This document shows positions 4,953 to 9,137 of a stretch of 64,000 nt of DNA, piece after piece; the stretch's first letter is position 1; each line of letters begins with the position of its first letter. Source of the stretch: Herminiimonas sp. (GTDB lineage Bacteria; Pseudomonadota; Gammaproteobacteria; Burkholderiales; Burkholderiaceae_D); contig DAIDBD010000050.1 in the NCBI GenBank assembly GCA_027310305.1, positions 1 through 64,000 of the forward strand, in the 5' to 3' direction. The position numbers and the translations under genes were made by a program. The notes under the pieces were generated by a model that ran no database searches, was not told the DNA's origin, and saw nothing but the letters and a program-made list of their open reading frames with translations.

Positions 4953-5684
4953 GTGATTCCCAATACACTGCGCCTGCCCGTCAGGATACTGCCCCAGCCG
5001 GATGAGACGACATGCGGTCCGACCTGCCTGCACGCAGTCTATGATTACTGGGGCGACGACGAAGCGCTGGACGCGGTGGTCGACCGTACCGGCCGTCTTG
5101 AATTCGGCGGCACGTTCGCCGTGTTTCTCGCCTGCGATGCTTTGCGTAAAGGTTACCGCGCCACTATTTATACCTATAACTTGAATGTGTTCGATCCGAC
5201 GTGGTTCACGCCCGGAGTCGATATTGCCCAACGCCTGCAGCAGCAGCGAGAGCGCAAACCGGACACCCGGTTGCAACGAGCCACCACCGGGTATCTGGAG
5301 TTTTTGCAACTGGGCGGCCGGTTGCGCCAGATGGATCTGACGCGCAGCCTGATCCAAGGCATCCTGCGCCGCAAACAGCCGCTGCTTACCGGTCTGAGTT
5401 CCACTTATCTTTATCGTACAACGCGCGAATTCGGGCCGAACGATACGCCGGACGATATTCGCGGCTTGCCGGCGGGTCATTTCGTCGTCATTGCCGGCTA
5501 CGACCTCGAGCGGCGCAAGGTATTGGTGATGGATCCTTACCAGCAAAATCCTTATGGCCGTTCCCATCAATACTGGATCGGGATCGACCGCGTAATCGGC
5601 GCGGTGCTGCTGGGAATCGTGACCCATGACGCCAACCTGCTGGTCATTCATCCGCGGCATCGGCCGCAACAGGCAATCCCATGA
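4953..5684 (+). CDS. C39-like (papain-fold) cysteine peptidase family protein of an amidoligase operon
   Basis: 243 aa from a GTG start; QPDETTCGPTCLHAVYDYWG (Q/Cys), GHFVVIAGYD (His) and MDPYQQNPYG (Asp) motifs; ATGA overlap with next gene. Confidence 0.82.
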   Translation: MIPNTLRLPVRILPQPDETTCGPTCLHAVYDYWGDDEALDAVVDRTGRLEFGGTFAVFLACDALRKGYRATIYTYNLNVFDPTWFTPGVDIAQRLQQQRERKPDTRLQRATTGYLEFLQLGGRLRQMDLTRSLIQGILRRKQPLLTGLSSTYLYRTTREFGPNDTPDDIRGLPAGHFVVIAGYDLERRKVLVMDPYQQNPYGRSHQYWIGIDRVIGAVLLGIVTHDANLLVIHPRHRPQQAIP

Positions 5685-7147
5685 AGATTCTTTTTATCGT
5701 CAGCCACCTGCGTGACTGGCCCTTCCCGCTACCCGGCGTTACCGTTGTGCCGGCGCGCGCTTATCTGACCGATCCAGCCTATACCGGCTGCGACGCCACC
5801 AAAGTATTCAACCTCTGCAATTCCTTCCGCTACCAAAGCCGCGGATACTATGTATCGATGCTGGCGGATGCGCGCGGCCATCAGCCGCTGCCGGACATCA
5901 AGGCAATCGAAGACTTGCAATCGGAAGGCATCATCCAGTTGCTCGCCGACAGCCTGGACGAATTGATTCAATCCGCGCTGATGCAGGTCGATGCAAATGC
6001 ATTCGAGCTGACCGCCTATTTCGGCCGCACGCCGGATGGCCAGTGCATGCAACTGGGCGAACAACTGTTCAATCTGTTGCGCATGCCGTTGCTGCAAGCG
6101 CGATTCGAACGCGATGGCGGGCGCTGGCGCCTGCGCCATGTCCATGCACTGACGCTCGACGACATTGCGCCGGAGCGCCTGCGCACCGTTGCCGATGCCG
6201 CGGCCGATTGCCTGAAAGGACACCGGCATCGGACGCGCGAACCGGCGGCGCAGAAACCGACGCTCGCCATTCTGCGCACGCCCGATTGCCAGGCATTGCC
6301 GTCGAACCCTGCTGCGATACGGAAATTCCAGGAAGCGGCGGAAGCGTTGGGAATGCGTTCCGAAGTCATCGCCCGGGCCGACGCCGAGCGGGCGATGCGG
6401 TTCGATGCGCTCTTCATCCGCGATACCACCAACGTCAATCACTATACCTATCTGTTGGCGCGGCGAGCCGCCGTGGCAGGCCTGGTGGTCATGGACGATC
6501 CGGATTCCATCCTCAAATGCAACAACAAGGTATACATGACCGAATTGCTGAACAGGCACCGCATTCCGATTCCCAAAACCATGCTGGTGCATCGTGGCAA
6601 CGTCGATCAGGTGATCGCCACGCTCGGCTTGCCATGCATTCTGAAGCAACCCGATGGCGCATTCTCGATCGGCATCGAAAAAGCCGGATCGAAAGAAGAG
6701 CTGCTGGCAAAGGCGCATGCATTATTGGAAACGTCTGAGCTGATCCTGGCGCAGGAATATCTGCCGACCGAATTCGACTGGCGCGTCGGCATACTCGACC
6801 GCAAGCCGTTATTCGTGTGCAAGTACTTCATGGCGCCCGGCCACTGGCAAATCATCAAGCATGAAAACAACCGTCAATCCCGCGAAGGATTGACGACGGC
6901 CTTTGCGCTGAACGAAGCACCGCGCGACGTGATCGATGTGGCGATGCAGGCGGCCAATCTGATCGGCGACGGATTCTACGGCGTCGATCTGAAACAGCGC
7001 GGCAATCAGTGCTACATCATCGAGATCAACGACAATCCGAACGTGGATGCCGGCAACGAAGACGGCGTGCTCCGCGATGCGCTGTACCGGCAAGTGATGA
7101 GCGTGTTCCGCAACCGGATCGAAGCACGCAAGGGCAGCGTCGCATGA
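5681..7147 (+). CDS. RimK-family ATP-grasp ligase with RLAN-like N-terminal domain
   Basis: 488 aa; ATP-grasp motifs CILKQPDGAFSIGIEK, YIIEINDNPNVDAGNED; N-terminal extension before the ATP-grasp core. Confidence 0.88.
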   Translation: MKILFIVSHLRDWPFPLPGVTVVPARAYLTDPAYTGCDATKVFNLCNSFRYQSRGYYVSMLADARGHQPLPDIKAIEDLQSEGIIQLLADSLDELIQSALMQVDANAFELTAYFGRTPDGQCMQLGEQLFNLLRMPLLQARFERDGGRWRLRHVHALTLDDIAPERLRTVADAAADCLKGHRHRTREPAAQKPTLAILRTPDCQALPSNPAAIRKFQEAAEALGMRSEVIARADAERAMRFDALFIRDTTNVNHYTYLLARRAAVAGLVVMDDPDSILKCNNKVYMTELLNRHRIPIPKTMLVHRGNVDQVIATLGLPCILKQPDGAFSIGIEKAGSKEELLAKAHALLETSELILAQEYLPTEFDWRVGILDRKPLFVCKYFMAPGHWQIIKHENNRQSREGLTTAFALNEAPRDVIDVAMQAANLIGDGFYGVDLKQRGNQCYIIEINDNPNVDAGNEDGVLRDALYRQVMSVFRNRIEARKGSVA

Positions 7148-8394
7148 TAGACGGTGCGCCTGCGCTGGCCGCCTTCATGGGATGCGGCATCGAGCTTGAA
7201 TACATGATCGTCGAGCGCGGCAGTCTCTCACCGCTGCCGATTGCCGACCAGTTGCTGCGCTCCGCCACCGACACGTATGCGAACGATGTCGATCGCGGCC
7301 TGCTCGGCTGGTCCAACGAACTGGTGATGCATGTCATCGAGATCAAGAACCAGCAGCCGACTGCGGATTTCGAAAGCTTGCCGGCCGCCTTCCAGGCTGA
7401 AGTGAAGTACATCAACCGGATCCTTGAGCTGTTCGATGCAAGGCTGATGCCGACCGCGATGCACCCATGGATGGATCCGCGCCGCCAGACGCGATTATGG
7501 CCGCATGGCAATGCGGATCTCTATGAAGCCTATGGCCGCCTGTTCGACTGCAATACGCACGGCTGGGCCAATCTGCAAAGCATGCATGTCAATCTGCCGT
7601 TTGCCGGCGATGGCGAATTCGCACGGCTGCATGCGGCGATCCGCCTGATGCTGCCGATCCTGCCGGCGCTGGCCGCGAGCTCGCCGATCGCGGACGGCGG
7701 CGTTACCGGCTTTGCCGACTTCAGGATGGAAGCCTATCGCACCAATGCGCAAGCGTTCCCATCGATTGCCGGCCAGGTCGTTCCGGAAACGGTAACCAGC
7801 CGCGCGGAATATCGGCGATCGATCCTGGCGCCGATGTACCGCGACATCGCCGGGTTCGATCCGCAACGCATACTGCAGCATGAATGGCTCAATTCGCGCG
7901 GCGCGATTGCGCGCTTCGATCGCAGCGCAATCGAGATCCGGGTGATCGATACGCAGGAATGTCCGCAGGCGGATCTGGCGATCGCCGCCGCCGTGATCGC
8001 ACTCGTCAAGTCGCTGTACGACGCCGGGCCGGACGCACTGGCGGCGCAGCAGGCGATCGGCACCGATCGGCTGGCTGCCGTATTGTTCGCCTGCACCCGC
8101 ACGGCCGAACAAACGGTGATCGATGATGCCGGATATCTGAAGCTGCTCGGTTTTCAAGGAAGCCGTTGTACTGCCCGGGAATTGTGGCGTCACCTGATCG
8201 AGCAGATGCAGTCGGGCGAACGCAGGCTTGCCGCCGCCCGGCTCAAGCCGCTGCAGGTCATGCTCGACCACGGTCCGCTTGCGCGGCGGATTCTGCGGGC
8301 AACCGGCGGCGATTATTCTAGGGCGCACCTGGCCGGCATTTACCGGCGGCTGTGCGAGTGCCTGCACCAGGGGCGCATGTTCGTGCCTGCATGA
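7144..8394 (+). CDS. Glutamate-cysteine ligase family 2 (GCS2 / YbdK-like carboxylate-amine ligase)
   Basis: ATG at 7144 overlaps the preceding stop (ATGA); MGCGIELEYMIVERGSLSPLP, FRMEAYRTNAQAFPSI and EIRVIDTQECP typical of GCS2 proteins. The ORF-track start at 7009 is too long. Confidence 0.85.
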   Translation: MIDGAPALAAFMGCGIELEYMIVERGSLSPLPIADQLLRSATDTYANDVDRGLLGWSNELVMHVIEIKNQQPTADFESLPAAFQAEVKYINRILELFDARLMPTAMHPWMDPRRQTRLWPHGNADLYEAYGRLFDCNTHGWANLQSMHVNLPFAGDGEFARLHAAIRLMLPILPALAASSPIADGGVTGFADFRMEAYRTNAQAFPSIAGQVVPETVTSRAEYRRSILAPMYRDIAGFDPQRILQHEWLNSRGAIARFDRSAIEIRVIDTQECPQADLAIAAAVIALVKSLYDAGPDALAAQQAIGTDRLAAVLFACTRTAEQTVIDDAGYLKLLGFQGSRCTARELWRHLIEQMQSGERRLAAARLKPLQVMLDHGPLARRILRATGGDYSRAHLAGIYRRLCECLHQGRMFVPA

Positions 8395-9137
8395 AAAACG
8401 ACTTTTTCCTGATTACCTGCGAGCACGGCGGCAACCGCATTCCGGCACGCTACCGTTCATTATTCGCCGGCCATCAAGCATTGCTGCGCACGCATCGCGG
8501 CTACGATGCCGGCGCGTTGCGCCTGGCGCGGGAAATGGCTGCCGCGCTGGATGCCCGCCTGGTCGCCGCTACCGTCAGCCGCCTGCTGATCGACCTGAAC
8601 CGTTCGATCACCCATCCGCGCTTGTATTCCGCAGCGAGCCGCGCGGCATCCGCCGACATCCGGGCAGAAATATTGCGGCGATATTACCTGCCCTATCGAG
8701 CCGCAGCGGAAATGGAAATCGCGCAGGCCATCGATCGGGACGAGCGGGTCATCCATGTTTCCTGCCACAGCTTCACGCCGCAACTCGACGACACGCTGCG
8801 CAATGCGGACATCGGTTTGCTGTACGATCCGGCGCGCCCCGGCGAGCTGGATTTTTGCCGGCGCTGGCGCAGCGCGCTGACGGTCCGGACACCCGAATCA
8901 CGCATCCGGATGAACTATCCGTATGCCGGCAAAAACGATGGCTTCACGACCGCGTTGCGCAAGCGCTTTCCAGCCGATTGTTATCTCGGCGTGGAACTGG
9001 AAGTCAATCAGAAACAGGTGTCCGATGATGCAAGCCGCTGGCGCGATCTGCGGCACGCGATCATCGAAGCGCTGCGTCATACCGCAAACCTGGACCGGCT
9101 TGAACGCTGCGCCGTACCGGCATCACCGGCGCGATGA
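8391..9137 (+). CDS. N-formylglutamate amidohydrolase family protein
   Basis: ATG at 8391 overlaps the GCS2 stop (ATGA); LITCEHGGNRIPARY, HRGYDAGALRLAREMA, VSCHSFTP and LGVELEVNQK motifs. Confidence 0.88.
   Translation: MKNDFFLITCEHGGNRIPARYRSLFAGHQALLRTHRGYDAGALRLAREMAAALDARLVAATVSRLLIDLNRSITHPRLYSAASRAASADIRAEILRRYYLPYRAAAEMEIAQAIDRDERVIHVSCHSFTPQLDDTLRNADIGLLYDPARPGELDFCRRWRSALTVRTPESRIRMNYPYAGKNDGFTTALRKRFPADCYLGVELEVNQKQVSDDASRWRDLRHAIIEALRHTANLDRLERCAVPASPAR

What the first reader, a model, noticed from the sequence alone, without database searches (positions are those of the whole stretch)
4953..9137. Four-gene translationally coupled C39-like peptidase / RimK ATP-grasp / GCS2 / N-formylglutamate amidohydrolase operon
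Sequence: all three junctions are 4-bp ATGA stop-start overlaps (5681-5684, 7144-7147, 8391-8394), implying co-translation and a single functional unit. Established knowledge: RimK-like ATP-grasp and GCS2 enzymes form amide/peptide bonds at carboxylates (often glutamate), C39-like proteases cleave leaders or isopeptides, and N-formylglutamate amidohydrolases hydrolyse N-acyl glutamate bonds. Comparative-genomic work on amidoligases has noted related neighbourhoods, but I know of no assigned product. Inference: a pathway that makes, attaches or trims a glutamate-rich or gamma-glutamyl peptide, with two ligases and two hydrolases as build and trim modules.
Basis: partly seen in the sequence, partly recalled or inferred. 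Interest (0 to 1): 0.85.

Follow-up and report, generated by a model that had tools for sequence, protein, structure and literature searches.

The report
Conserved four-enzyme capped-peptide synthesis cassette
A tightly packed set of four enzyme genes, kept together in the same order across at least nine bacterial phyla, probably builds and trims a small glutamate-capped peptide that nobody has identified; in related bacteria the cap-adding enzyme is always replaced by an acetyl-adding one, which hints at how the pathway works.

Summary
Four co-directional genes at 4953-9137 (C39-like cysteine peptidase; RLAN + RimK-type ATP-grasp; GCS2 ligase; FGase amidohydrolase) join through three 4-bp ATGA overlaps. 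They form a real unit: the order C39-RLAN-GCS2(-FGase) recurs in loci from Pseudomonadota to Planctomycetota, Thermodesulfobacteriota and Bacteroidota, with invariant catalytic residues, conserved stop-start overlaps and no conserved outside partner. The FGase is not HutG, and the genome has a separate glutathione synthase gene.

The new finding is a clean split. Among 291 gammaproteobacterial genomes (GTDB sense), all 68 with an RLAN ATP-grasp carry either the cassette GCS2 (16) or a distinct RLAN-linked GNAT acetyltransferase, usually fused to its own C39-like domain (52). None carries both. The RLAN tree has the same two sides, but two cassette-side genomes have lost GCS2 and carry the GNAT. 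One other locus fuses GNAT and RLAN-ATP-grasp in a single protein.

Best reading: GCS2 gamma-glutamylates, or GNAT acetylates, a free amine; the ATP-grasp extends the carboxylate end; C39 and FGase trim or recycle. The product is an uncharacterised N-capped short peptide, logically like the osmolyte NAGGN. Product and substrates are inferred. From memory, comparative genomics had already predicted this pathway type.

The parts
4953..5684 (+). C39-like papain-fold cysteine peptidase/transferase (243 aa, GTG start); Q15, C21, H176, D194 invariant
   Evidence: PF13529 E 3e-10; invariant catalytic residues in 70-73 loci; AlphaFold2 pLDDT 93, Foldseek to C39 peptidases, phytochelatin synthase Alr0975 and PeiR
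5681..7147 (+). RLAN domain + RimK/ArgX-type ATP-grasp amide ligase (488 aa)
   Evidence: PF14401 E 1.5e-43, PF08443; closest solved folds ArgX, LysX, RimK; invariant K283, K322, R368, D436, E448, N450
7144..8394 (+). GCS2-type gamma-glutamyl (carboxylate-amine) ligase (416 aa)
   Evidence: PF04107 E 8e-25; own subfamily, far below YbdK/GshA equivalog cut-offs; invariant E17, E19, E59, H63, E66, N143, Q145, R194, E264, R266
8391..9137 (+). FGase-type zinc N-acyl-amino-acid amidohydrolase (248 aa), not HutG
   Evidence: PF05013 E 9e-26; HutG model 25 bits vs cut-off 279; nearest solved structure 2odf, function unassigned; invariant E11, H12, H35, D39
5681..5684 (+). ATGA stop-start overlap, C39/RLAN junction
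   Evidence: sequence; 4-bp overlap in 47 of 89 homologous junctions
7144..7147 (+). ATGA stop-start overlap, RLAN/GCS2 junction
   Evidence: sequence; 61 of 92
8391..8394 (+). ATGA stop-start overlap, GCS2/FGase junction
   Evidence: sequence; 29 of 79

Best explanation
The four genes encode a self-contained pathway, independent of tRNA and NRPS, that makes and turns over an N-capped short peptide. Proposed steps: GCS2 activates glutamate (probably its gamma-carboxyl) with ATP and joins it to the free amine of a substrate, capping it. The RLAN-ATP-grasp enzyme activates the carboxylate end of the capped unit with ATP and adds another amino acid, as RimK, ArgX and glutathione synthase do. The C39-like enzyme cleaves or transpeptidates an amide in the product, and the FGase hydrolyses an N-acyl-glutamate-type bond for trimming or recycling. 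In most other bacteria with the same ATP-grasp the cap is acetyl, put on by a dedicated GNAT, and neither GCS2 nor a linked FGase is found. Shown: the unit, its conservation, intact active sites, and the exclusive GNAT/GCS2 alternation. Inferred: step order, substrates, a small-molecule rather than protein product, and the roles of the hydrolases.
For: Fixed gene order across many phyla with no recurrent extra gene. When a member is not adjacent it is often elsewhere in the genome: RLAN in Nitrosospira, FGase in Nitrosomonas communis and Blastopirellula. Perfect partition in 291 genomes: RLAN in 68, always single copy there; cassette GCS2 in 16, all RLAN+; the other 52 all have the RLAN-linked GNAT (43 by DUF3335, 9 by GNAT profile or adjacency); none has both. 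GCS2 genomes have no GNAT above 55 bits, whereas RLAN-linked GNATs score about 104 or more. The RLAN tree separates the two types with SH-aLRT 100, yet two genomes on the cassette side without GCS2 (G025, G280) carry the GNAT (104 and 141 bits), which looks like partner replacement. GNAT lies next to RLAN in all 20 further loci sampled from Pseudomonadota and is fused to it in L183. Ngg, the NAGGN enzyme, combines N-acetylation and peptide-bond formation (PMC8070244).
Against: No substrate or product is known. GCS2 and GNAT could serve two different pathways that share a homologous ligase, and the partner swap rests on two genomes, in one of which (G025) the GNAT is unlinked to RLAN. Some three-gene loci lack a detectable FGase, so FGase is accessory. 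The RimI-like flavour of the GNAT (83 bits vs an 86.4 cut-off) equally suits acetylation of a protein or peptide N-terminus. C39 could act before, not after, ligation.
Confidence: 0.55

Rival explanations
1. Protein modification system: the RimK-like ligase adds amino acids to a protein C-terminus or side chain, GCS2 (or the RimI-like GNAT) modifies an N-terminus, and C39 and FGase are erasers, as RimB is for RimK.
For: ATP-grasp nearest to RimK and ArgX; GNAT nearest to RimI, 83 vs 86.4 bits; C39 fold resembles peptidases including endoisopeptidase PeiR; RimB/RimK and Rlo precedents (PMC12239564).
Against: No conserved substrate protein or precursor lies beside the cassette in any lineage outside local synteny. 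GCS2 and FGase families are, from established knowledge, small-molecule enzymes.
Confidence: 0.2
2. Removable protecting-group logic, as in butirosin or LysW pathways: GCS2 or GNAT puts a temporary gamma-glutamyl or acetyl group on an amine, the ATP-grasp adds an amino acid, and C39 or FGase removes the cap from the final product.
For: Weak BtrH_N similarity of C39 (E 0.12); ATP-grasp fold closest to ArgX, which works on LysW-protected substrates; FGase is tied to the GCS2 variant and was not found at the GNAT-type loci.
Against: No acyl-carrier or LysW-like protein recurs nearby. FGase is missing from several three-gene genomes and C39 from some GNAT-type loci, so deprotection would be dispensable. 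The BtrH_N score is far below its cut-off.
Confidence: 0.15
3. A glutathione-like redox thiol: GCS2 makes gamma-Glu-Cys or a relative, the ATP-grasp adds a third residue as GshB does, and C39 acts like phytochelatin synthase.
For: Same enzyme order as GshA then GshB; Foldseek matches C39 to phytochelatin synthase Alr0975.
Against: The genome has its own strong GshB at another locus, 419 bits. The alternative partner is an acetyltransferase. Nothing points to cysteine as substrate.
Confidence: 0.07

Closest known systems
NAGGN (N-acetylglutaminylglutamine amide) osmolyte pathway, asnO-ngg-peptidase
   Same: Capping step (GNAT) plus peptide-bond step, with a peptidase in the same operon (PMC8070244); the GNAT-type relatives of this cassette use GNAT + ATP-grasp + peptidase and include a GNAT-ATP-grasp fusion
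   Different: The cassette uses GCS2 instead of GNAT, has no amidotransferase, and its peptidase is C39-like; the ATP-grasp carries RLAN; the NAGGN model hits only the GNAT part of the relatives, weakly (26 bits)
Glutathione biosynthesis (GshA/GshB) with phytochelatin synthase
   Same: Gamma-glutamyl ligase followed by an ATP-grasp ligase; papain-fold enzyme of related shape
   Different: All proteins fall far below GshA and GshB equivalog cut-offs; the host already has GshB elsewhere
RimK/RimB and RloABC operons
   Same: RimK-like ATP-grasp next to a protease
   Different: Aspartic retropepsin-like proteases, no GCS2 or FGase; documented substrates are protein S6 tails or periplasmic targets (PMC12239564)
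RLAN/RimK-like amidoligase neighbourhoods predicted by Iyer et al. 2009 (PMC3268129)
   Same: From memory, that work defined RLAN and predicted small-peptide pathways pairing ATP-grasp, GCS2 and peptidases
   Different: Paper not held, so how much of this cassette and of the GNAT/GCS2 exclusivity it described could not be checked

Membership tests
RLAN-RimK-like ATP-grasp amidoligases (PF14401 + PF08443) | RLAN domain followed by an ATP-grasp domain above the curated cut-offs | tested here: met
   148.5 bits vs 25; 34.8 vs 21
RLAN-RimK-like ATP-grasp amidoligases (PF14401 + PF08443) | ATP- and metal-binding ATP-grasp residues conserved | tested here: met
   K283, K322, D436, E448, N450 invariant
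RLAN-RimK-like ATP-grasp amidoligases (PF14401 + PF08443) | Amide ligase activity | not testable with these tools
   needs enzymology
HutG N-formylglutamate deformylase | Score above the TIGR02017 cut-off (278.75 bits) | tested here: not met
   25.3 bits; no match in own genome
Glutathione GshA/YbdK equivalogs | Score above NCBIfam equivalog or subfamily cut-offs | tested here: not met
   TIGR02050 57 vs 176; others lower
RimK S6 glutamate ligase | Score above rimK_fam or PRK10446 cut-offs | tested here: not met
   65.9 vs 143.4; 26.6 vs 331
NAGGN synthetase Ngg (TIGR03103) | GNAT-ATP-grasp protein above cut-off 569, with an asparagine-synthase-like partner | tested here: not met
   Window ligase not matched; GNAT of a relative 26 bits; no such partner among recurrent neighbours
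C39 bacteriocin leader peptidase | C39 fold with catalytic Cys-His-Asp and oxyanion Gln | tested here: met
C39 bacteriocin leader peptidase | Fusion to an ABC transporter, or a linked double-glycine precursor | tested here: not met
   243-aa stand-alone protein; no recurrent transporter or precursor gene among flanking ORFs of 70 aa or more; shorter ORFs not tested

The most novel reading that the evidence does not exclude
GCS2 and the RLAN-linked GNAT are interchangeable capping modules on one ancient peptide-ligase core, so bacteria of many phyla make an undiscovered family of N-gamma-glutamyl or N-acetyl short peptides (protectant or osmolyte-like), with FGase as the cap-specific recycling enzyme of the gamma-glutamyl version.
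Probability: 0.4. Interest if true: 0.78.

Novelty: new variant of a known kind. Interest (0 to 1): 0.62.

Why it matters
The cassette is widespread: a genome scan hit its limit with 552 relatives of the GCS2. It is conserved between phyla that share few operons, yet it has no assigned product. The GNAT/GCS2 alternation gives a specific, testable rule: same ligase, different cap. The two variants can therefore be compared by metabolomics in cultivated strains, which would assign function to four large annotated-but-unknown families at once (RLAN, DUF3335/C39-like, a GCS2 subfamily and an FGase subfamily).

Tried and rejected
HutG/histidine degradation: rejected. Glutathione pathway: rejected as identity. 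P. aeruginosa PA1766-PA1769: recalled lead; literature shows these are the unrelated Rlo operon. Graspetide RiPP locus: no recurrent precursor or ABC exporter nearby, and the graspetide survey does not mention RLAN. Conserved flanking gene as clue: none outside Oxalobacteraceae synteny. Riboswitch upstream as clue: no Rfam hit near cassettes in 17 loci or the window. Promoters and terminators: no more matches than shuffles. Literature search for this gene set: no held paper describes it; Iyer 2009 not held. Planctomycetota- and Bacteroidota-wide RLAN counts could not be run.
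Full report
OBSERVATION. Four + strand ORFs at 4953-5684, 5681-7147, 7144-8394 and 8391-9137 overlap by exactly ATGA at each of three junctions. Pfam assigns Peptidase_C39_2, RLAN + RimK ATP-grasp, GCS2 and FGase, all above curated cut-offs. The window lies in a 4.0 Mb, 97%-complete assembly. Its nearest named relative at this locus is a Herminiimonas MAG (80% identity in the ATP-grasp), so it is probably an Oxalobacteraceae.

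IS IT A UNIT? Yes. Profile searches show C39-RLAN-GCS2-FGase in the same order and orientation in the great majority, counting the window and the class-level loci (75 loci scored all four by the automatic tally; 12 had the first three). Hosts include Oxalobacteraceae, Nitrosomonadaceae, Gallionellaceae, Thiobacillaceae, Rhodocyclaceae, Planctomycetota, Thermodesulfobacteriota, Bacteroidota, Rhodothermota, Balneolota, Acidobacteriota, Hydrogenedentota, Krumholzibacteriota and Eiseniibacteriota. Some of these are MAGs whose names look unreliable (one labelled Klebsiella, one Rhizobium). Junctions remain within 30 bp in 84/89, 87/92 and 67/79 cases, and exactly -4 in 47, 61 and 29. Gene-to-gene distance correlations are 0.68-0.86 over 73 loci; this has no null model, so it is only descriptive. 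No flanking gene recurs outside Oxalobacteraceae synteny apart from generic regulators, ABC ATPases and DnaJ.

EXCEPTIONS THAT PROVE USEFUL. In Nitrosospira multiformis the RLAN gene is not between C39 and GCS2 but lies elsewhere in the genome. In Nitrosomonas communis and Blastopirellula marina the FGase is unlinked but present (4e-99, 2e-91); five three-gene MAGs lack a detectable copy. The link is therefore partly genomic, not only positional, and FGase is the most dispensable part.

ACTIVE SITES. Across 73 cassettes the C39 Gln15/Cys21/His176/Asp194, the GCS2 acidic, His and Arg residues, the FGase Glu/His/Asp set (His126 in 72 of 73) and the ATP-grasp Lys, Asp, Glu and Asn residues are invariant (alignments). 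Calling them catalytic rests on established knowledge of these families. The C39 model (pLDDT 93) matches C39 peptidase domains, the primitive phytochelatin synthase Alr0975 and the endoisopeptidase PeiR, all at modest TM-scores. The RLAN-ATP-grasp model (pLDDT 91) matches ArgX, LysX and RimK over the ATP-grasp part. FGase is nearest to 2odf, a structure without assigned function. None belongs to a named equivalog.

THE SECOND CONTEXT. Most RLAN ATP-grasp genes in Gammaproteobacteria are not in the cassette. They sit next to a GNAT acetyltransferase, usually fused to a DUF3335 C39-like domain. That domain is a distant but profile-detectable relative of the cassette C39 (hhalign E 1.2e-5, probability 81). 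Some partners are GNAT alone. All 20 additional loci from across Pseudomonadota show the GNAT partner. In L183 GNAT and RLAN-ATP-grasp are one 667-aa reading frame.

EXCLUSIVITY. In the same 291 genomes: RLAN in 68; cassette GCS2 in 16, all RLAN+; strong DUF3335 in 44, of which 43 are RLAN+. The nine RLAN genomes in neither list all have the RLAN-type GNAT, adjacent or at 104 bits or more. The 16 GCS2 genomes have none above 55 bits. So 52 + 16 = 68 with no overlap. Caveats: the genome search uses a loose first look that missed divergent GNAT-only partners in the DUF3335 search; completeness varies; the class sample is even but not independent.

PARTNER REPLACEMENT. The RLAN tree divides at SH-aLRT 100 into a GNAT side and a cassette side. 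Two RLAN genes deep on the cassette side (L057 in G025, L066 in G280) have no cassette GCS2 in their genomes but do have the GNAT. In G280 it is on the same contig and strand, about 2.3 kb upstream of the ATP-grasp gene. This is the pattern expected if GNAT and GCS2 do equivalent jobs: both acylate an amine.

MECHANISM (inferred). GCS2 caps an amine with glutamate; the RLAN-ATP-grasp lengthens the carboxylate end; C39 and FGase trim or recycle. FGase goes with the GCS2 form and was not found at the GNAT-type loci, which suggests that it acts on the glutamyl cap or on a glutamate-containing piece. The closest experimentally documented logic is NAGGN, where Ngg acetylates glutamine and forms the peptide bond (PMC8070244). 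The cassette is not that system.

NOVELTY. The RLAN domain and, from memory, small-peptide neighbourhoods around it were predicted by Iyer et al. 2009, which could not be read here. No held paper describes this gene set or the GNAT/GCS2 alternation. I file it as a new variant of a known kind: non-ribosomal ATP-grasp capped-peptide pathways.

Noticed in passing
L183:5556-7556 (-): A single 667-aa ORF joins a GNAT domain to RLAN-ATP-grasp, while a separate GNAT-C39 gene lies next to it; truncated RLAN and GNAT matches also share one reading frame in G157 contig C10.
   Followed up: partly
L066:4498-4971 and L066:7180-8634; G025 contig C19: Cassette-clade RLAN ligases in genomes without cassette GCS2 that instead carry an RLAN-type GNAT: apparent partner replacement.
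   Followed up: yes
L188 and L189 (G351): One genome with two RLAN ligases, one beside a GNAT-C39 protein and one beside a GNAT alone; two other genomes of the same genus also hold two RLAN copies.
   Followed up: no
window 11373-12542 (-): ORF that appears to fuse a polyketide-cyclase/SRPBCC domain with an HSP20 domain, an unusual architecture.
   Followed up: no
window 2734-4105: DUF883/ElaB-like, holin-X-like (YqjE-type) and a further small protein gene upstream of the cassette; this block keeps its place upstream of the cassette in several Oxalobacteraceae.
   Followed up: partly
window 17523-22097: FAD-binding monooxygenase-type, cupin and aldehyde dehydrogenase genes in a row, perhaps an aromatic catabolism cluster.
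   Followed up: no
window 53274-53347 (-): A tRNA gene, the only Rfam match in the window.
   Followed up: no
L118: FGase separated from GCS2 by about 2 kb in Noviherbaspirillum aridicola, a possible insertion.
   Followed up: no
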